From: Puniceicoccales bacterium
Lineage (GTDB): Bacteria > Verrucomicrobiota > Verrucomicrobiia > Opitutales > UBA953
Assembly (NCBI GenBank): GCA_031285745.1
Contig: JAITVQ010000164.1
Coordinates: 1-51,895 of the forward strand
DNA length: 51,895 nucleotides
Direction of reading: 5' to 3'
In this document: piece by piece, positions 33,937-44,561 of the stretch
How the letters are laid out: the number at the start of each line of letters is the position of its first letter
Position numbering within the stretch: position 1 is the stretch's first letter
The notes under the pieces: model-generated
The model's input: the letters and a program-made list of their open reading frames with translations, nothing else
Databases searched by the model: none
Told to the model about the DNA's origin: nothing
Translations under genes and position numbers: made by a program

Positions 33937-35556
33937 TTACACAGCATTCTCTCCTAAGCACTTTTCCCACGTTAAGCCGAAACGAGCCAAATACTTCCTC
34001 AAACGGTCGGCATCATTGCGAGTCCTGCGCTTTTCTCCGGAAATATCGAACAAGTACCGCCCGGCTTCAGAGAGGTTTTTTGATTTTCGACAAGTTTCGA
34101 CCACGACAGACAACTGCACCTGGTCGAAGCGATCAATGTGGGAAAGGTGTTTTTTCCCGAGAACTTTTTCCAGCAAATCCACGGATGCCTGTGTTGATTG
34201 ATTGTCGGCATCGCCGCGCCAATCTTCCAATAACCGGGATCTCTCCTGTTCAAACACCTCCATATTAATCCTTCGACCGCGTGAAAGAGTGGCCATGCGG
34301 ACCAAGGCGGCGTTCAGATCACGGAAGTTTCCGCTCCAACGGGCCTCATGGCTGGTTGCGAAACGAAGAAATGCTTCCTCTGCCTCCTTGTTAAAGCGTA
34401 CCTGCTGGCCGAATTCGCGGGCCAGTTTCTCCAGCTCGTAACGCACGTTGGGCGCGATATCCTCCGGGCGCTCGCGCAGACCCGGCAGCCGAAAGCTCCA
34501 CAGGTTGATTCGGGCCAGTAGGTCGGCCCGGAAGTCGCCTTTTGTCACTGACTGTCGTAGATCCCGGTTGGTACCGCAGATGAACTGAAAATCGCTCTTG
34601 GCATCCTTGTCGGCGCCCAGGGGAAGAAATCGTTTTTCTTCCAATGCCCGTAATAGCATGGCTTGTTCGTCGGCACCCAACTCGCCGATCTCGTCCAGAA
34701 ACAACAAGCCATTGTGCGCCGCCTTGAGCAATCCCGGCCTGTCCGTGGTGGCACCGGTAAAGGAACCCTTTACATGTCCGAACAGGGCGGACATCGCGCT
34801 ATCGCCGCGCAGTGTCGCGCAATTTACCTCGACGAAATTGCCGCTCAACTGTCCCCGGGACTTCTTCAGCTCGTAAATACGCCGGGCCAGTTGCGATTTC
34901 CCCGCCCCCGTTGGCCCCATCAGCAAAACTGGCGCCCGGGAATGCAGTGCTACCTGCTCGATATCATCAATCATCCGATTGAAAGTGTCATTGCTCGTCT
35001 CAATGCCTGATTTCAGGAAGGCGGCGGTCTCCCGTTGCTCTTCCTCGAATCGGGCGGCCAGCCGATCATATTTCGACAGATCGAGGTCAATAATCCCATA
35101 GTTTCCCTCGGGCCCGTCATTGTTCCGCCGGGGTGGAAAGGTCTGGATCAATCGACCGGGCAGATGGCCCGACTCTGTCAGCAAAAACAAACAGATCTGC
35201 CCTACGTGACTCCCGGTGGTGATATGGATCAGGTAATCCTCTGAATCGGGGTCAAAAGACTGCTTCTTGGCATAATCATGCAGCGCGGAGTAAACACTCT
35301 CGAAATCCCAGGGATCCTTGTTGAAATCGACCTCTATCAGCCGAACCTCGGTCTCCGGTGATGCCGTCTGCATATCGGAGCTTACGCTTTCCGCCAACGC
35401 CTTGAATTGCGGTTCGTGCAACAGGTCGAACCGCGCAACCAGCAAATCTTCCTGCTGACAGAGTCCCACCGACGGTCGCCATTTGGACCAACGATCCTGC
35501 GGATGGCGTGAGTCAAGCTGGGTTCCCAGCAAACCAATCACAATCGTCCTTTTCAT
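33937..35556 (-). CDS. rtcR: Sigma-54-dependent regulator RtcR with N-terminal CARF-type domain
   Basis: N-terminus MKRTIVIGLLGTQLDS...RPSVGLCQQEDLLVARFDLL, ITTGSHVGQICLFLL; AAA+ motifs GPTGAGKS, GSFTGA (GAFTGA), LLFLDEIGEL; C-terminal HTH-like end. Confidence 0.93.
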   Translation of the reverse strand: MKRTIVIGLLGTQLDSRHPQDRWSKWRPSVGLCQQEDLLVARFDLLHEPQFKALAESVSSDMQTASPETEVRLIEVDFNKDPWDFESVYSALHDYAKKQSFDPDSEDYLIHITTGSHVGQICLFLLTESGHLPGRLIQTFPPRRNNDGPEGNYGIIDLDLSKYDRLAARFEEEQRETAAFLKSGIETSNDTFNRMIDDIEQVALHSRAPVLLMGPTGAGKSQLARRIYELKKSRGQLSGNFVEVNCATLRGDSAMSALFGHVKGSFTGATTDRPGLLKAAHNGLLFLDEIGELGADEQAMLLRALEEKRFLPLGADKDAKSDFQFICGTNRDLRQSVTKGDFRADLLARINLWSFRLPGLRERPEDIAPNVRYELEKLAREFGQQVRFNKEAEEAFLRFATSHEARWSGNFRDLNAALVRMATLSRGRRINMEVFEQERSRLLEDWRGDADNQSTQASVDLLEKVLGKKHLSHIDRFDQVQLSVVVETCRKSKNLSEAGRYLFDISGEKRRTRNDADRLRKYLARFGLTWEKCLGENAV

Positions 35557-35711: not shown

Positions 35712-35729
35712 TTGGCATGCTGCTGGCAT
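35712..35729 (+). promoter_or_regulatory. Candidate sigma-54 (-24/-12) promoter of the Ro60/RNA-repair operon
   Basis: TTGGCATGCTGCTGGCAT: GG-N10-GC spacing, 42 nt upstream of the Ro60 start, divergent from a sigma-54 activator gene. Confidence 0.75.
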
Positions 35730-35770
35730 TAATGATGGCTACAAAAACTTCAGAAAGGAGAAATCACATC

Positions 35771-37327
35771 ATGGCCAACAAAACACTCTTCTCAACCATC
35801 GCCTCTCTTGTGGCTCGCCCGGCGGACACCATCAACGAAGCCGGAGGGAAGGCCTACGCCCTGTCACCGCAGCAGGCACTTGCCCAATACGCGCTGACCG
35901 GCTGCCTCAACGGCACATTTTATGCCGAGGCGGAAGTCCAGTTGGCCAGGGTGATCGACCTGTGCTCCCAAGTGGATGACACCTTCATCGCCCGGCTGGC
36001 TGTGTATGCCCGGCACGAGGGTGGCATGAAAGACATGCCGGCACTGCTCTGCGCGATTCTTTCGACCCGGGATACCCGGCTCTTCAACTGGGTGGCGCGT
36101 TCGGTACTCAACTCATCCCGCTTGATCCGCACATTTGTCCAGATCATGCGCAGTGGGGCAGTAGGCCGAAAATCCTTGGGTACCCGTCCGAAGAAAGTCA
36201 TCATCGACTGGCTGAACCGGCTCGATGACGATACACTCTTCCGCCAATCCATTGGCGCGGATCCGTCACTCGGCGACATCATCAAGATGGTGCACCCGAC
36301 CCCGGCAACCCCGGCTCGCGAGGCGCTTTATGCCTACTTCACGGATCGTCCGCACAAGGCGGAAGTTTTGCCGACATTGGTCCGCGACTTCGAAGCCTTC
36401 AAGTTATCACCGCAAACGGTTTCCTTGCCGGATGTTCCGTTCCAGATGCTTACTTCATTCCCGCTCGGGGCCAAACAATGGGCGGATATCGCCCGGCGTG
36501 CCTCCTGGCAGACATTGCGAATGAACTTGAACACCTTGGCGCGTAACGGCGTCTTCTCGCTGCCGGGCATGAGTGCGACCATTGCCTCGCGTTTGCGTGA
36601 TGCGAATGCCATCCGGGCCGCCCGTGTGTTTCCTTACCAGATGCTCTCAGCCGCACGGCATGTTGACACCGCAGTTCCGCAGGAAGTGCAGCGGGTGCTG
36701 GAAGATGCCATGGAAATCTCCGTGGACAATGTTCCGGCCATCGCAGGCGACGTGGTCATCTGTGTTGATGTTTCGGGCTCCATGGAAAGTTCCATCACGG
36801 GCTATCGAAAAGGTGCGACCAGCAAAATCCGTTGTGTCGATGTCGCCGCGCTTATCGCGGCGGCTGTTCTCCGGAAGAACCCGCAGGCGCATGTCATCCC
36901 GTTTGCCGATGATGTGGTCTCGGTCTCATTGCGAACGGGGGCTACTGTCTTGGAAAACACCAATCGCCTGGCGGCAGCGCTCGGCGGCGGAACCAACTGC
37001 AGCGCGCCGTTGACCCGGCTCAACGCGCAGCGGGCCAAGGCCGACCTGATCATCTATGTCTCCGACAACCAGTCCTGGGTAGATGCCCGGTCAACGCATT
37101 GCACGGCGACCATGCAGGAATGGACCAAGTTCAAATCCCGCAATCGTCGGGCCCGGATGGTCTGCATTAACTTGCAGCCTTACGGGACCGCCCAGGCAAC
37201 AGGGAGCGCGGATATCCTCAACATCGGGGGATTTTCCGACCACGTCTTCCAGATGATTGCCGATTTTGCCCAAGGGCAGGATGGCGGCGATAGTCTCATC
37301 AAGCGGATCGAAGCCATCGAGCTTTGA
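35771..37327 (+). CDS. rsr: Ro60/Rsr ortholog (TROVE domain + vWA/MIDAS)
   Basis: TROVE-like N-terminus (YALSPQQALAQYALTGCLNGTFY...), C-terminal vWA with MIDAS VVICVDVSGSMESS; start at MANKTLFST with AGGAG upstream. Confidence 0.93.
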   Translation: MANKTLFSTIASLVARPADTINEAGGKAYALSPQQALAQYALTGCLNGTFYAEAEVQLARVIDLCSQVDDTFIARLAVYARHEGGMKDMPALLCAILSTRDTRLFNWVARSVLNSSRLIRTFVQIMRSGAVGRKSLGTRPKKVIIDWLNRLDDDTLFRQSIGADPSLGDIIKMVHPTPATPAREALYAYFTDRPHKAEVLPTLVRDFEAFKLSPQTVSLPDVPFQMLTSFPLGAKQWADIARRASWQTLRMNLNTLARNGVFSLPGMSATIASRLRDANAIRAARVFPYQMLSAARHVDTAVPQEVQRVLEDAMEISVDNVPAIAGDVVICVDVSGSMESSITGYRKGATSKIRCVDVAALIAAAVLRKNPQAHVIPFADDVVSVSLRTGATVLENTNRLAAALGGGTNCSAPLTRLNAQRAKADLIIYVSDNQSWVDARSTHCTATMQEWTKFKSRNRRARMVCINLQPYGTAQATGSADILNIGGFSDHVFQMIADFAQGQDGGDSLIKRIEAIEL

Positions 37328-37336
37328 CCATAAACA

Positions 37337-37367
37337 TGGAGTGCGGCAGCGCACCTGCCACACTCCA
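37337..37367 (+). other. Stem-loop between rsr stop codon and first Y-RNA-like unit
   Basis: TGGAGTG-C-GGCAG/CGCAC/CTGCC-A-CACTCCA: 12 bp with one C.A mismatch; not followed by a U-tract. Confidence 0.6.
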
Positions 37368-37386
37368 TTGCACCTTTCATCATCTT

Positions 37387-37508
37387 GGCGCGAATGCCGT
37401 GAGAACTACATGGTCTCCCGGACGCCGGGTTCGAGTCCCGGCCCCTTGCCAGCAAGGGTAGCTCAGTGGTAGAGCAAGGAATTGTTTTCACACCACCTTT
37501 GTCGCGCC
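37387..37508 (+). ncRNA. Y-RNA-like unit 1, Ro-type basal stem plus permuted tRNA-like module
   Basis: P1 GGCGCGA/TCGCGCC; P2 GTGAGAAC/GTTTTCAC; T-arm CCGGG-TTCGAGT-CCCGG; acceptor-like CCCTTG-CCAG-CAAGGG; D-arm TAGCTCAGTGGTAGAGC, in that 5'-3' order. Confidence 0.88.
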
Positions 37509-37527
37509 TCCTGTTCTTTTTCAAATT

Positions 37528-37653
37528 TGCGTGAATGCCTTGGGAACTACATTGGTTGCGGGTTCGAATCCCGCCTCTCGCGAAGGACGCAACTGACTGT
37601 CGCGGGAGTAGCTCAATGGTAGAGCAGTCTGTTCCCGGATTCCTTGTCACGCA
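37528..37653 (+). ncRNA. Y-RNA-like unit 2, Ro-type basal stem plus permuted tRNA-like module
   Basis: P1 TGCGTGA/TCACGCA (covaries with unit 1); P2 TTGGGAAC/GTTCCCGG; T-arm GCGGG-TTCGAAT-CCCGC; acceptor-like CTCTCGCGA/TCGCGGGAG; D-arm TAGCTCAATGGTAGAGC. Confidence 0.88.
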
Positions 37654-37682
37654 TCCCGTTTTCAACCCTCTCCCGCCCCTTT

Positions 37683-37780
37683 GGCGCGAATGCCGGGGAA
37701 ACTACATGGTCTAATGTCGGTTCGAACCCGGCTTGCAGGTCTGGATAGCCTGCAAATGTTTCCTCAATCCTTGTCGCGCC
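37683..37780 (+). ncRNA. Y-RNA-like unit 3, T-arm only (no D-arm)
   Basis: P1 GGCGCGA/TCGCGCC; P2 GGGGAAAC/GTTTCCTC; T-arm GTCGG-TTCGAAC-CCGGC; then TTGCAGG-N9-CCTGCAA stem running straight into P2'. Confidence 0.82.
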
Positions 37781-37835
37781 TCCTGTGGCGTCGTCACCTT
37801 GACGGCACTGCCGGGAGAAGACACCATTTCACCTT

Positions 37836-37899
37836 GGGCCGAATGCCGCCGTGACTACATTTACACCATGTCTCCGTCACGGCAACCTCTTGTCGGTCC
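37836..37899 (+). ncRNA. Y-RNA-like unit 4, minimal stem-loop without tRNA-like module
   Basis: P1 GGGCCGA/TCGGTCC; conserved ATGCC internal loop; P2 GCCGTGAC/GTCACGGC (8 bp perfect); 20-nt loop starting TACAT as in the other units. Confidence 0.75.
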
Positions 37900-37929
37900 T
37901 CTTCCCTTTAAAGTTCAACCATCCCTTTC

Positions 37930-38955
37930 ATGTCCCTCATTCACATCGACGGTTCCGAAGGCGAAGGCGGCGGTCAAATCCTCCGTACTTCCCTCGCGCT
38001 TTCCATCATCACCGGCAAGCCCATCCGTATCGACAACATTCGTGCCGGACGCTCCAAGCCCGGGCTGCTCCGGCAGCACCTGGCCTCGGTCAAGGCGGCG
38101 GTGGAAATATCCCGCGCCAAGGCCGAGGGCGTTGCGCTTGGGTCAACCGCGCTCACTTTTCATCCCGGGAACGTTACTGCGGGAGAATACCGTTTCTCCA
38201 TTGGCTCGGCGGGCAGCGCCCTGCTGGTCTTCCAGACGATCCTCCTGCCCCTGCTTCATGCGGATGCTCCGAGCACGGTGACCATCGAGGGTGGTACGCA
38301 CAACCCGTTTGCCCCGCCGTTTCCGTTCATCGAAAAAACCTTCCTCCCCTTGCTGCACCAGATCGGCTACCAGGTCGAAGTGAAACTGGAACGTCCCGGC
38401 TTCTATCCGGCGGGTGGTGGTATCATCACGGCCACCATTACTCCGGGAGGAAAACGCCGCGTGCTCAAGATCGGGCCGCGCACGGAAATTCTGGATCGCG
38501 AAGCCATTGGCGTTGTTGCCAATCTTTCGCGCAAGATCGCCGAACGGGAACTGGAGCGACTGGGCTCCGCGATGAGCCTTGTTCCCGACGAAATGTGCAT
38601 CCACGAAATCAACGACACGCCTGGTCCCGGCAATGCCCTTTTCGTGAAACTGCGCAGCAGCCAGCTTACCGAAACCTTCTCCTCTTTTGGGGAACAGGGA
38701 CGGCATGCCGAAAAAGTGGCGGACGGACTGCACGACGAGGTCCGGCGGTACCTGAAAAGCAATGGTGCCGTCGGCGAACATCTGGCCGACCAGCTTCTGC
38801 TGCCGCTCGCCTTGGCCAAAGGGGGTGTTTTCACCACCCTGCCGCCTTCCCGCCACACCCAAACCAACATTGCGGTCATCGGACGCTTTCTCGATGCCCG
38901 CATCAACGTCCGGAAGATCGACCGCCTCGATTACGAAATCGAGGTCAAACCATAA
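37930..38955 (+). CDS. rtcA: RNA 3'-terminal phosphate cyclase
   Basis: HIDGSEGEGGGQILRTSLALSIITGKPIRIDNIRAGRSKPGLLRQHL, GGTHNPFAPPFPFIEKTFLPLL, GFYPAGGG and HLADQLLLPLALA motifs; start MSLIHIDGSEGEGG. Confidence 0.95.
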   Translation: MSLIHIDGSEGEGGGQILRTSLALSIITGKPIRIDNIRAGRSKPGLLRQHLASVKAAVEISRAKAEGVALGSTALTFHPGNVTAGEYRFSIGSAGSALLVFQTILLPLLHADAPSTVTIEGGTHNPFAPPFPFIEKTFLPLLHQIGYQVEVKLERPGFYPAGGGIITATITPGGKRRVLKIGPRTEILDREAIGVVANLSRKIAERELERLGSAMSLVPDEMCIHEINDTPGPGNALFVKLRSSQLTETFSSFGEQGRHAEKVADGLHDEVRRYLKSNGAVGEHLADQLLLPLALAKGGVFTTLPPSRHTQTNIAVIGRFLDARINVRKIDRLDYEIEVKP

Positions 38956-38974
38956 CCAACGTATCCAACATACC

Positions 38975-40357
38975 ATGACACATCAAGAAATCATCAAACT
39001 CGGCGTCCCCGAGGGTAAACCGCTTTCCCTGGCTTTCCATCTCATCAAGCTCATGGCTGAATCCGGCGCGGATCGGGCTGCCATGGAGGCGCGGATCAGC
39101 GCCGTTGTCCAGGATCCCGCAGCCTTTGCCGACGACCCGCAGGCCGGTCCGTTTGCCCAGGTCCTGTTGTCCGAGCGCTATGTCCCGCGTGCCGAACCGG
39201 CACCCTGGCGACAATGGGGGAGCGGACTGGAAGAAACTGCCGTCCAGCAGATGCGCGTGGCCTGCCAGTTGCCGGTCTCGTTTGCCGGGGCGCTCATGCC
39301 CGACGCCCACGTCGGCTATGGCCTTCCCATCGGCGGCGTCCTTGCCACCCGCAATGCGGTTATTCCCTATGCGGTCGGGGTCGACATTGCCTGCCGCATG
39401 AAGCTCTCCGTTTACGACCTTCCGGTGTCATTGCTCGAAGACGATGAAAACCGCCTCAAGTCGGCACTGGCCCGGGAAACCCAATTCGGGGTGGGCGCGA
39501 CTTTCAAGCAACGCCGCCAACATGAAGTCATGGACCGCGATTGGGGCGTCTCCCCGATCACCCGGCAAAACAAGGACAAGGCCTGGGCCCAGTTGGGAAC
39601 CAGCGGAAGCGGCAACCACTTTGTCGAGTACGGCGTATTGACCTTGGACGCTCCGGCCTTGGGTCTGGATGCCGGGCGATATCTCGCCTTGCTCAGCCAT
39701 AGCGGAAGCCGGGGAACCGGAGCCTCCGTGGCCGACCATTACAGCAAACTCGCCAAGAAAATGCACCCCGAGCTTCCCGACAACCAGCGCAACCTGGCCT
39801 GGCTTGATCTGGATACCCCGGAAGGGCAGGAATATTGGGCGGCCATGGAACTCATGGGTGAATACGCGGCTGCCAACCATGCCTGTATCCACAAACACAT
39901 TGCGGCCCAGTTGGGCGCGCAGGTGTTGCTCGACGTCGAGAATCACCACAACTTTGCCTGGAAGGAAATTCATCAGGGCGAGGAAGTGATTGTCCACCGT
40001 AAGGGGGCAACCCCGGCTGGCGCAGACGTCTTGGGGATCATCCCCGGTTCCATGGGTGCGCCCGGCTATGTCGTGCGCGGACGCGGCAATGCGGAATCAT
40101 TGCACTCGGCTTCACACGGGGCAGGGCGACGCATGAGCCGGACCAAGGCTTTTGAAACCATTACCTGGGAACAAACCCATGCATGGCTCAAGGAGCGCGG
40201 CGTTAAGCTCATGTCTGCCGGCTTGGACGAATCGCCGCTGGCTTACAAGGATATCGCCGAGGTCATGGCTGCCCAGGTCGACCTTGTCGAAACACTGGCC
40301 CGCTTCGATCCCCGCCTTGTCAAAATGGCCCCGGCGGGTGAACGTCCGGAGGATTAA
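38975..40357 (+). CDS. rtcB: RtcB family RNA ligase, divergent subgroup with N-terminal extension
   Basis: MPDAHVGYGLPIGGVLA, AVGVDIACRM, SGSGNHFVEYG, LSHSGSRGTGA, VENHHNFAWKE, IPGSMG and SHGAGRRMSRTKA motifs. Confidence 0.9.
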   Translation: MTHQEIIKLGVPEGKPLSLAFHLIKLMAESGADRAAMEARISAVVQDPAAFADDPQAGPFAQVLLSERYVPRAEPAPWRQWGSGLEETAVQQMRVACQLPVSFAGALMPDAHVGYGLPIGGVLATRNAVIPYAVGVDIACRMKLSVYDLPVSLLEDDENRLKSALARETQFGVGATFKQRRQHEVMDRDWGVSPITRQNKDKAWAQLGTSGSGNHFVEYGVLTLDAPALGLDAGRYLALLSHSGSRGTGASVADHYSKLAKKMHPELPDNQRNLAWLDLDTPEGQEYWAAMELMGEYAAANHACIHKHIAAQLGAQVLLDVENHHNFAWKEIHQGEEVIVHRKGATPAGADVLGIIPGSMGAPGYVVRGRGNAESLHSASHGAGRRMSRTKAFETITWEQTHAWLKERGVKLMSAGLDESPLAYKDIAEVMAAQVDLVETLARFDPRLVKMAPAGERPED

Positions 40358-41434: not shown

Positions 41435-41795
41435 CTTTTGTTCGCGAACAATGCCACCATGTCGTTGTTCATGGCGTCTCTGTTCACGAACAAATGTATG
41501 AAGTACACTGGCGGTGTTATAATTGTTCGTAAACAAAACCGTGAAGTACACTGTACCTGTAGCAATCGTTCCTAAGCAGAGGTACCCCTGCAATGTAAAT
41601 GGTCCCATTGTTTCCGAACAAAACCATCAAGTACATTGTAGGTGTAATAATCGTTTCCGAACAGAGGTATGAAGTACAGTGTATGTGGCTCCAATGTTCG
41701 TGAACAAAACAATGAAGTGCAATGTACCTGTAACAATCGTTCGCGAACAAAAGAGCCATGACAATGTGGATGGCCCGATTGTTCACGAACGAAAG
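41435..41795. repeat. 42-43 bp tandem array, nine units centred on TGTTCGCGAACA-like palindromes
   Basis: Palindrome centres at about 41444.5, 41486.5, 41529.5, 41572.5, 41614.5, 41657.5, 41700.5, 41743.5 and 41785.5; spacers alternate between two types (~85 bp higher-order period). Confidence 0.85.
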
Positions 41796-42177
41796 AGGCA
41801 TGCACACTGAACTTCATGGTTTAGTTGGGGTCATTTTAGATTAGTTTCCTATTGTTATTGAGTGTCTTGAAAAACAAGGCGGGGTGTGACGCGGAAGGAC
41901 AGACGGTCTCTCATGCATAGTGTTTAAATGGAGCATTGGAACACATGGCGCCGCTTGAGGGTATTGGTAAAAACACTCAACCCCGAATGCTTAAATTTTA
42001 ACGTTCGATGAGGAGAGTTGCAAAACTCTCATCAGAAATTTGCGAATTCCGGTGATTTCTCGTTTTCCTGTCTATTCGCTATCTAATCCTGTCTTTAAAA
42101 ATAGGTTCCATACGCTTATGCCTGTCCACTGTGTATGGTTAATTTCTCAATTTGGAGATAAATATAAGCCGAATGGA

Positions 42178-43314
42178 TCAATTAGCTGAGCTGGGCGCAG
42201 TCCAAAGAACTGCTTCTTGGATGACATATTCCTCTATGTCGAAGGTAAACCGGTTTGGCAGGTGTAATTTTTCACTAACCCAATTCCAGGATGTTACCCA
42301 CCAAGGCGGGAATTTTCCAACCGTGCCGACAATCAACCCTTGATTGTTGATGTCAACGGCCTGGCTCCAATCAGCACCCATGGTGCCAAGATCACAAAAG
42401 CCCTGTTCCTGGCTCCAGAAAAAAGCCCGGGTGTTATTTTTCATTTTAAATATGCCGACGACCTGCTGACTGTCGTTGACATGGAAGGGAGTCGCGGTGT
42501 GGCCCAGATTCCCGATATTCCGGGTGCCGGATTCTTCTGTCCAGAGGAAGACGGGTACGTTGTCGGGAGACACATTTAAGCATCCCAATAGTTGTCCTTT
42601 GATAATAGGAACTCTGCCCCAGTCATTATGTTTGGGAAGTCCCAGGTCCTGCATGCCGTCTTTCTGCGTCCAGCGGAAAACATGAGTGGTCCCGTCTGCC
42701 AATTCCGATTCGCCGATGATGCATCCGGAATCATCGATATACCTAGGATAACTGTCTTTTCCGCCGAGCGTCCCGATGTCCTGTATTCCATTCTCACGGG
42801 ACCAGAAGAACGCATGGGTCTGGTCATTTCCCAGATAAAGATGTCCGGCAATCTGGCCTTTGTTATTGATGGCTGAGGCGAGACTACGGAGTCCGCTCAA
42901 AGTATCCAAGTTCTGCATACCTGACTCCTTGGTCCACAGAAATGCATGGGAGTTTCCGGCAGCAGTAGAGGAGTATCCGACGATCTGGCCCTTGTCATTC
43001 ATGGCAAAAGGCATGGTCATTGTTCCGCCCAAGGTGCCGATATCCTGCATCCCCGTTTCTTGGGTCCAAAGAAATCCCCGGGGAGGTGACTTTGCCAGAT
43101 AAAATCCCATGACTTCGCCGTCTTCATTAATACTAAGGGCGGTACTGAAATGTCCACTTGGGGCGCCCAGACGAATTCCACCTTTGGGTTGTGGTTCGAG
43201 ACAAATGGCCAGCAGGATGATGACAATGCCGGTGGCCAGTGCACAGATGACTATCTTGAAGTGCTTTTGCATACCAATCGCAGCCTTGGCTTTTGTTTTA
43301 AGCGACTTGGTCAT
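42178..43314 (-). CDS. HAF-repeat protein, membrane-anchored or exported
   Basis: N-terminal TM (ALATGIVIILLAICLEP) plus repeats 'HAFLWTKESGMQNLDTLSG..S.A.AINNKGQIAG'. Confidence 0.85.
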   Translation of the reverse strand: MTKSLKTKAKAAIGMQKHFKIVICALATGIVIILLAICLEPQPKGGIRLGAPSGHFSTALSINEDGEVMGFYLAKSPPRGFLWTQETGMQDIGTLGGTMTMPFAMNDKGQIVGYSSTAAGNSHAFLWTKESGMQNLDTLSGLRSLASAINNKGQIAGHLYLGNDQTHAFFWSRENGIQDIGTLGGKDSYPRYIDDSGCIIGESELADGTTHVFRWTQKDGMQDLGLPKHNDWGRVPIIKGQLLGCLNVSPDNVPVFLWTEESGTRNIGNLGHTATPFHVNDSQQVVGIFKMKNNTRAFFWSQEQGFCDLGTMGADWSQAVDINNQGLIVGTVGKFPPWWVTSWNWVSEKLHLPNRFTFDIEEYVIQEAVLWTAPSSAN

Positions 43315-43355
43315 AAGCGTGGGTTACTTTTATCAATGAGCGGGGCTGCCTGCCC

Positions 43356-44561
43356 TTAATCAGCAGAGTCGTTTTTGTTATCTTCAGGATTGTTGACCGC
43401 GAGAGGAGGTGGTGCGAACCAGAGTGCTGCTTCGGAGGGAGCGTATTTCTTCAAATCCAAGAAATATTTTTGGGATAGATCCAATTTCTTGCCAACCCAA
43501 TTCCAGGACTTCACCCACCACGGGGCGAGGCTCCCGACGGTGCCGGTAATCTGCCCTTGATTATTGATACTAGTGGCGCGGCTCCAATCGAGGCCGAGGG
43601 TGCCCAAATCGTGCAAACCCTGCTCCTTGCTCCAGAAGAAGGCCCGGTTGCCGTCCTTGGTCCTGAGCGTGCCGACGATTTGCTGTTTACTGTTGATGCA
43701 ATGCGGGGTGCCGTCACCACCCAGATCCCCGAGGTCTTGGATGCCGGTTTCTTTTGTCCAAAGATAGGCGTGGGTTGCGCCCTGCGGTGTTTTAAATGTG
43801 CCGAGTATCTGTCCCTTGATGAAAGGATTTTTATCCCAATTATCTTGTGCAGGGACTCCCAGATTCTGCATGCCCTGTTCCTTGTTCCACTGGAAAACAT
43901 GAGAGGTCCCGTCGGTCGATTCCGATAGGCCGATGATGAACCCGGTGTCATCAATATATCTGGGATCACTGCCTATCCCACCCAAGGTATCGAGTTTCTG
44001 CATGCCCGATTCCTTTGTCCAGATGAACGCATGCTTTTTCCCATCGAGTGAATAGGCATAGCCGGTGACTTGCCCCTTGTCATTGATGGATCTGGCGAGG
44101 CTTATGTTCCCGCCCAGGGTGCCGAGATTCTGCATCCCGGACTCCTTGCTCCACAGGAACGCGTGGGAGTGCCCATTGGCAAGATTGGACCACCCGATGA
44201 CCTACCCATCACGATTAATCCCGAACGGCATGCTGATGGACCCTCCGAGAGACCCCAAGTCCTGCATGCCCGACTCCTTGTCCCAGAAGAAAGCCCGGGA
44301 GTATCCTTCCGGTTTGGTCTGGATCACCCCGATAATCTGTCCTTTTTCGTTAATGCTACCTGCATAACTTGAAAGTCCCCCCATGGAGCCCAAACGGATT
44401 CCACCTTTGGGCGGCGGTTCGAGATAAACGGCCAGCAGGATGATGAAGATGCCGATGACAAGTGAACAGACGGCAACCCTGAAATGCTTTTGCCTTCCAG
44501 ATGTGGTTTTGATGTGGAGAGGGGCGTTGGGAAGGGAAGAGCGGGGCTCGGGCATAAACAA
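43356..44561 (-). pseudogene. HAF-repeat paralog interrupted by an in-frame TAG
   Basis: ORFs 44202-44561 and 43356-44135 lie in the same frame; TAG at 44204-44202 sits where the paralog has the conserved Gln of 'DGQVIGW/KGQIVGY'. Confidence 0.75.

What the first reader, a model, noticed from the sequence alone, without database searches (positions are those of the whole stretch)
37387..37899. Array of four tandem Y-RNA-like units between Ro60 and rtcA
The gap between the TROVE/Ro60 gene and rtcA holds no convincing ORF. It holds four units with the same architecture: a 7-bp basal helix P1, then A-UGCC on the 5' side, an 8-bp helix P2, a conserved UACAU, a variable insert, P2', and a C/U-rich 3' internal loop ending in (C)UUG before P1'. 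P1 is GGCGCGA/TCGCGCC, TGCGTGA/TCACGCA, GGCGCGA/TCGCGCC and GGGCCGA/TCGGTCC, so the bases change while pairing is kept. P2 differs in sequence in every unit and still pairs. This matches the expected Ro-binding stem of Y RNAs. Known bacterial rsr-Yrl-rtcBA loci are established in principle; four graded members in one locus looks unusual to me, but I have not searched.
Basis: partly seen in the sequence, partly recalled or inferred. Interest (0 to 1): 0.93.

Follow-up and report, generated by a model that had tools for sequence, protein, structure and literature searches.

The report
Four bacterial Y RNAs beside Ro60
The gap between a bacterial Ro60 gene and its RNA-repair genes really does encode four Y RNAs in a row, two of them carrying a rearranged tRNA mimic; this is a known kind of locus, and four copies turns out to be the typical number among its relatives.

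Summary
Four hairpin RNAs lie at 37387-37508, 37528-37653, 37683-37780 and 37836-37899, between Ro60 (rsr) and rtcA. A covariance model built only from other genomes finds exactly these four in the window and nothing else (97, 95, 58 and 40 bits). Unit 2 passes Rfam's cut-off for YrlA; units 1 and 3 match YrlA below it. Helix covariation across relatives is strong. Units 1 and 2 carry a circularly permuted tRNA-like module (T arm, acceptor, D arm; the Y stem replaces the anticodon arm). Unit 3 keeps only the T arm, and unit 4 is a bare stem-loop. Four members are not unusual: 55 Ro60 loci from several phyla hold a median of four units (range 1-8; 31 loci have four or more). Unit 4 does not look like a decayed copy of its neighbours: its Ro-binding stem is closer to minimal units in other phyla than to its own array. 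Across loci the tRNA-like and minimal classes carry different signatures in that stem. Most likely these are RtcR/sigma-54-induced Y RNAs that cap Ro60 and, through the tRNA-like module, tether it to partners such as PNPase. New members of a known kind; expression and binding are untested.

The parts
33937..35556 (-). rtcR, sigma-54 activator of the RNA-repair operon, divergent from Ro60
   Evidence: Pfam RtcR 1.5e-78 and Sigma54_activat 1.9e-48
35713..35727 (+). sigma-54-like promoter TGGCATGCTGCTGGC (GG-N10-GC) just upstream of Ro60; inferred
   Evidence: 2 mismatches to TGGCACG-N4-TTGC. Such matches are as common as chance in the window, so only its position, orientation and the neighbouring rtcR support it; locus L004 has TTGGCACGCACCGTGC in the same place
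35771..37327 (+). Ro60/Rsr (TROVE + vWA). Start set at 35771 (MANKTLF), not 35717, which lies inside the promoter-like site
   Evidence: Pfam vWA_Ro60 9.5e-20, TROVE 2.3e-6; homologous starts align at M19 of the longer ORF; PDB 2nvo, D. radiodurans Rsr, E 7e-26 with profile A1
37387..37508 (+). Y RNA unit 1, YrlA type: P1 GGCGCGA/TCGCGCC, P2 GTGAGAAC (37399-37406)/GTTTTCAC (37484-37491)
   Evidence: R1 97.4 bits; RF02553 60.1 bits, below the cut-off of 69
37424..37475 (+). permuted tRNA-like module of unit 1: T arm 37424-37442, acceptor 3' strand 37443-37449, acceptor 5' strand 37452-37458, D arm 37461-37475
   Evidence: R1 alignment; coordinates
37528..37653 (+). Y RNA unit 2, YrlA type: P1 TGCGTGA/TCACGCA, P2 TTGGGAAC (37540-37547)/GTTCCCGG (37631-37638)
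   Evidence: RF02553 77.5 bits, above gathering score 69; R1 95.2 bits
37558..37625 (+). permuted tRNA-like module of unit 2: T arm 37558-37574, acceptor 37575-37581 / 37602-37608, D arm 37611-37625
   Evidence: alignment
37683..37780 (+). Y RNA unit 3, half-tRNA type: P1 as in unit 1, P2 GGGGAAAC (37695-37702)/GTTTCCTC (37758-37765); keeps a T-arm hairpin (37716-37732), with acceptor and D arm replaced by one 8-bp hairpin (37733-37755)
   Evidence: R1 58.2 bits; RF02553 38.8 bits, below the cut-off
37836..37899 (+). Y RNA unit 4, minimal type: P1 GGGCCGA/TCGGTCC, P2 GCCGTGAC (37848-37855)/GTCACGGC (37876-37883), short loop, no tRNA-like part
   Evidence: R2 67.5 bits; R1 40.4 bits; RF02565 YrlB only 20.9 bits, E 0.16
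37930..38955 (+). rtcA, RNA 3'-phosphate cyclase
   Evidence: Pfam RTC 1.7e-77
38975..40357 (+). rtcB, RNA ligase
   Evidence: Pfam RtcB 3.4e-87; start ATG at 38975

Best explanation
The four units are Y RNAs of an RtcR-controlled RNA-repair operon (rsr - four Y RNAs - rtcA - rtcB). Broken tRNA ends activate RtcR, which fires a sigma-54 promoter upstream of rsr; the single transcript is trimmed into Ro60 mRNA, Y RNAs and rtcAB mRNA. Each Y RNA binds the outer face of a Ro60 ring through P1 - internal loop (AAUGC / CUUG) - P2, gating the ring. The distal part sets the partner: the permuted tRNA module of units 1 and 2 (and the T-arm hairpin of unit 3) is available to tRNA-recognising enzymes and to PNPase, while the bare unit 4 would only cap Ro60. 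Shown here: the structures, their covariation, the gene order, a sigma-54-like site in the right place, and a PNPase gene elsewhere in the genome. Inferred from work on Salmonella and Deinococcus: induction by tRNA fragments, Ro60 binding, tethering. Confidence is about 0.95 that they are Y RNAs and about 0.6 for the division of labour. Whether the transcript is cut into single units was not examined.
For: An independent covariance model finds all four units, E <= 3e-8. Rfam YrlA matches. Two-sided changes at 23 of 31 pairs with 98.4% of cells paired, and 0/500 shuffles as high on every measure; the acceptor helix, which was not used to pick units, has 7 of 7 pairs with two-sided changes. The same gene order recurs in many phyla. 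RtcR, Ro60, RtcA and RtcB domains. Ro60 keeps the vWA metal-site residues D351, S353, S355, T426, D450 and an HP motif that is also present in D. radiodurans Rsr. PNPase gene present, 890.9 bits. Literature: induction of rsr-yrlBA-rtcBA by tRNA fragments (PMC7790460); YrlA as tRNA mimic and PNPase tether (PMC8394870).
Against: No expression data. The sigma-54-like site is a weak pattern, with 149 matches in the window against 156 expected by chance. Units 1, 3 and 4 miss Rfam's gathering scores. The energy-only folds of units 1 and 3 do not show P2. PNPase tethering is known only from Deinococcus.
Confidence: 0.85

Rival explanations
1. Decay series: one full YrlA unit was duplicated in tandem and the copies are at different stages of losing the tRNA-like module, so units 3 and 4 are pseudogene-like.
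For: Units 1 and 3 share an identical P1 and their cores differ at only 6 of 36 positions. Unit 3 lacks the acceptor and D arm.
Against: Unit 4's core is 12-15 differences from its array-mates but 5-6 from minimal units in Planctomycetota and Acidobacteriota loci. P1 and P2 of unit 4 are perfectly paired. Minimal units covary across genomes and occur in 23 of 46 loci with finder-detected units. Decay may still explain unit 3.
Confidence: 0.12
2. A cis-acting leader or attenuator of rtcA: the hairpins regulate or process the polycistronic mRNA and are not free RNAs.
For: They lie inside the presumed operon transcript, with unit 4 only 30 bases before rtcA.
Against: In other loci the same units lie before Ro60, after Ro60 without rtc genes, or kilobases away (L005, L161, L134). 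Their closest relatives (YrlA) are free RNAs.
Confidence: 0.05
3. Remnant or permuted tRNA genes, or a tRNA cluster, with no link to Ro60.
For: Rfam tRNA matches at 37452-37582 with 42.5 bits.
Against: That match joins the D arm of unit 1 to the T arm of unit 2 across 130 bases. ARAGORN calls no tRNA. Each acceptor stem pairs within its own unit. The module replaces an anticodon arm with the Y stem, and no host tRNA is a near copy.
Confidence: 0.02

Closest known systems
YrlA (Rfam RF02553), tRNA-mimicking bacterial Y RNA of Salmonella and others
   Same: Same P1/internal loop/P2 layout, same GAAUGC...CUUGUC strands, same permuted T arm-acceptor-D arm module in units 1 and 2; encoded beside Ro60
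   Different: Only unit 2 passes the gathering score; unit 3 has just the T arm; unit 4 has none of the module
YrlB (Rfam RF02565)
   Same: Unit 4 is a short Y RNA without tRNA module, next to YrlA-type units, as YrlB is next to YrlA in Salmonella
   Different: The Rfam YrlB model scores unit 4 at only 20.9 bits (cut-off 97); sequence outside the Ro-binding core is not shared
rsr-yrlBA-rtcBA operon of Salmonella (PMC7790460)
   Same: Divergent rtcR, Ro60 first, Y RNAs in the middle, rtcA and rtcB last
   Different: Four Y RNAs instead of two; rtcA precedes rtcB
Xanthomonas sacchari plasmid NZ_CP010410.1 locus (L024)
   Same: rtcR, Ro60, four YrlA-like units, rtcB, rtcA
   Different: rtcB precedes rtcA; different unit types

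Membership tests
Bacterial Y RNA (general) | Encoded next to a Ro60 ortholog | tested here: met
   Ro60 ends 60 bases before unit 1; Pfam and PDB matches
Bacterial Y RNA (general) | Ends pair into a stem with a conserved internal loop (Ro-binding stem) | tested here: met
   All four units, 7-bp P1 and 8-bp P2; covariation across relatives
Bacterial Y RNA (general) | Binds Ro60 and is expressed as a small RNA | not testable with these tools
   Needs small-RNA sequencing and pull-down
YrlA (RF02553) | Score at or above the Rfam gathering score | tested here: inconclusive
   Unit 2 met (77.5 against 69). Unit 1 (60.1) and unit 3 (38.8) not met; unit 4 does not match at E <= 1
YrlA (RF02553) | tRNA-like domain with T arm, acceptor and D arm | tested here: inconclusive
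   Met in units 1 and 2; T arm only in unit 3; absent in unit 4. Filing: units 1 and 2 as YrlA, unit 3 as a YrlA variant, unit 4 not YrlA
YrlB (RF02565) | Score at or above the Rfam gathering score | tested here: not met
   Unit 4: 20.9 bits against 97, E 0.16. Unit 4 is therefore not filed as YrlB
RtcR-controlled RNA-repair operon | Divergent rtcR, sigma-54 promoter, rtcA and rtcB | tested here: met
   Genes met; the promoter is only a plausible pattern match
tRNA (RF00005) | Complete cloverleaf with anticodon arm | tested here: not met
   ARAGORN none; the Rfam hit is a chimera of two units

The most novel reading that the evidence does not exclude
Ro60 arrays hold two old Y RNA lineages, not one graded series: tRNA-like units whose P2 ends ...AAC|UACA and bare units whose P2 ends ...GAC|UACA. 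They coexist in many phyla with class-specific Ro60-binding stems, so that Ro60 could sort tether-type from cap-type Y RNAs. The within-locus association of unit class with P2 signature exceeds all 2000 shuffles, and the nearest core in another phylum shares the class more often than in all 200 shuffles.
Probability: 0.45. Interest if true: 0.5.

Novelty: new member of a known kind. Interest (0 to 1): 0.3.

Why it matters
Bacterial Ro60-Y RNA particles are known from a handful of species. This locus adds a clean four-member array, with full, half and absent tRNA mimicry side by side, in a bacterium with an intact RtcR-RtcA-RtcB set. The survey around it shows that multi-member arrays are the rule and that unit classes have their own Ro-binding-stem signatures, which makes a division of labour among Y RNAs directly testable with one Ro60 protein and four natural RNAs.

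Tried and rejected
1) 'Four units is unusual': rejected by a survey of 55 Ro60 loci, median 4. 2) tRNA cluster: the Rfam tRNA hit spans two units and ARAGORN finds none. 3) tRNA-like modules as captured host tRNAs: compared with the 30 host tRNAs returned; best summed local scores are 32 of 55 (unit 1, tRNA-Asp) and 33 of 53 (unit 2, tRNA-Lys), with no near copy. 4) Protein-coding gap: the ORFs there are antisense or run out of frame into rtcA; not convincing. 5) More units elsewhere in the genome: none convincing; the next R1 hits (E 0.03-0.3) fall on or next to tRNA matches. 6) Array in the closest relatives: one same-genus genome has a Ro60 fragment (305 of 526 positions) where the fetched DNA ends, and no array was found in it, so a direct orthologous array was not available. 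7) Ro60 tree to place the window: the window branch is long and unsupported, so horizontal transfer could be neither shown nor excluded. 8) Sigma-70 promoters and terminators inside the array: not above shuffles. 9) Key papers on bacterial Y RNAs (PMC4201824, PMC6047535, PMC6281776) are not in the library; what I recall of Chen et al. 2014, that at least one Y RNA per species has a tRNA-like domain, is from memory and unchecked.

Full report
What is there. The stretch 37328-37929 lies between Ro60 (35771-37327) and rtcA (37930-38955); rtcB follows at 38975 and rtcR points away upstream. The gap holds four GAATGC words and four TTGTC words in alternation. Each pair of words brackets one unit: 37387-37508, 37528-37653, 37683-37780 and 37836-37899. 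The P1 arms next to these words pair 7/7 in every unit although the word anchors do not require it; swapped between units they pair fully only where two units share the same P1. P2 pairs 8 bp in each unit and scores worse in every swap.

Beyond chance and beyond this genome. I collected Ro60 loci with a three-sequence Ro60 profile from the window's own phylum (12 of 387 genomes), the phylum of a Pirellulales genome (35 of 343), the phylum of Acanthopleuribacter (9 of 297), three Proteobacteria plasmids and viral contigs. A motif finder gave 151 units on the sense strand, 0 on the antisense strand and 0 in shuffles. From other genomes I aligned 34 full units (A3) and 22 minimal units (A2), leaving the window out. 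On A3, 98.4% of cells form standard pairs and 23 of 31 pairs show changes on both sides; no shuffle of 500 reaches any of the measures, and sliding the partner by one column drops pairing to about 42%. Parts of P1, P2, T arm and D arm were used to select units, so their pairing is partly by construction. The acceptor helix was not used, and it covaries at 7 of 7 pairs with 97.4% of cells paired. Model R1 from A3 then found the four window units, at the same borders, and nothing else in the window. In the whole genome the next match is E 0.03, at a tRNA.

What each unit is. Units 1 and 2 are YrlA-type: inside P2 come a T arm (TTCGAGT or TTCGAAT loop), the acceptor 3' strand, a short loop, the acceptor 5' strand and a D arm (AGCTCA..GGTAGAGC). 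This is a tRNA whose acceptor end is closed into a loop and whose anticodon arm is replaced by the Y stem. Rfam's YrlA scores unit 2 at 77.5 bits (cut-off 69), unit 1 at 60.1 and unit 3 at 38.8. Unit 3 keeps a T-arm hairpin and replaces the rest with one 8-bp hairpin. Unit 4 is P1, internal loop, P2 and a small loop; it fits the minimal-class model R2 at 67.5 bits but not Rfam's YrlB (20.9 bits, cut-off 97).

Is four unusual? No. Joining finder and R1 hits, 55 Ro60 loci hold 203 units; every locus has at least one, the median is 4, 31 loci have 4 or more, and the maximum is 8. Caveats: a few loci are near-duplicates (for example L118/L119, L137/L141, L148/L149), and many hits in the other genomes come from units that built the model. 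A Xanthomonas sacchari plasmid, a Methylosinus plasmid and a Pirellulales genome each have four. Most multi-unit loci mix classes (35 of 38).

One series or two classes? The window's unit 4 differs from its array-mates at 12, 14 and 15 of 36 core positions but from minimal units in Planctomycetota and Acidobacteriota loci at 5-6. Over all loci, full units tend to end P2 with AAC (27 of 53) and minimal ones with GAC (21 of 26), never AAC; the association exceeds 2000 of 2000 within-locus shuffles. The nearest core in another phylum shares the class in 74% of cases, against at most 70% in 200 shuffles; this second test is only modestly strong, and half of the minimal units have a full unit as nearest core.

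How it probably works. [quoted passage not shown] YrlA's basal stem holds Ro60, and its tRNA-like domain binds PNPase and is modified by tRNA enzymes (review PMC8394870; the PNPase tether was worked out in Deinococcus). Here rtcR is present and divergent, a GG-N10-GC site lies at 35713-35727 just before the Ro60 start, and a PNPase gene is present elsewhere. I infer the same control, Ro60 binding by all four units, tethering by units 1 and 2 and perhaps 3, and capping by unit 4. None of these activities was tested here.

Where it stands against the known. The locus type, YrlA and its tRNA mimicry are established. From memory (the paper was not available here), Chen et al. 2014 already reported that at least one Y RNA per species carries a tRNA-like domain, which implies several per species. 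The four units are therefore new members of a known kind. What I did not find described is the class-specific P2 signature and the array-size survey, but the literature open to me was thin.

Noticed in passing
window 35713-35771: The longest ORF start for Ro60 (35717) lies inside a sigma-54-like promoter site; the homologous start is ATG 35771 (MANKTLF) behind a GAAAGGAG ribosome site.
   Followed up: partly
window 37452-37582: Rfam tRNA (RF00005) scores 42.5 bits across two neighbouring units, a chimera of unit 1's D arm and unit 2's T arm. Tandem permuted modules can therefore create false intron-bearing tRNA calls.
   Followed up: yes
L079:2022-2969; L091:1669-5887; L093:3139-3955: IMG/VR contigs classed as viral carry Ro60 with about 7 or more Y RNA units each, as large as or larger than most bacterial arrays.
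   Followed up: partly
L152-L159: A separate, well-supported planctomycete Ro60 clade has no units by the strict GAATGC..TTGTC finder, but R1 finds units, in several loci upstream of Ro60 instead of downstream.
   Followed up: partly
L126:6918-7051, L134:7281-7419, L136:6892-7021: In these three YrlA-type units the acceptor 3' strand is followed by ACCA, like an encoded tRNA 3' end; this raises the question whether RNase P or CCA-processing acts on permuted modules.
   Followed up: no
G036:C36 (L175, L206): A same-family genome has a distant Ro60 relative (E 1.6e-21) and a weak YrlA-like match about 2 kb away on the same contig.
   Followed up: no
window 41517-41817 (-): Two overlapping antisense ORFs have internally repetitive translations (..NDCYRYIALHCFV.. 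/ ..NDCYRYSVLHGFV..), suggesting a DNA repeat between genes.
   Followed up: no
window 42178-44561 (-): Several neighbouring ORFs encode similar repeated 'MQDLGTLGG..INNKGQIVG' segments, apparently a broken or tandem family of repeat proteins.
   Followed up: no
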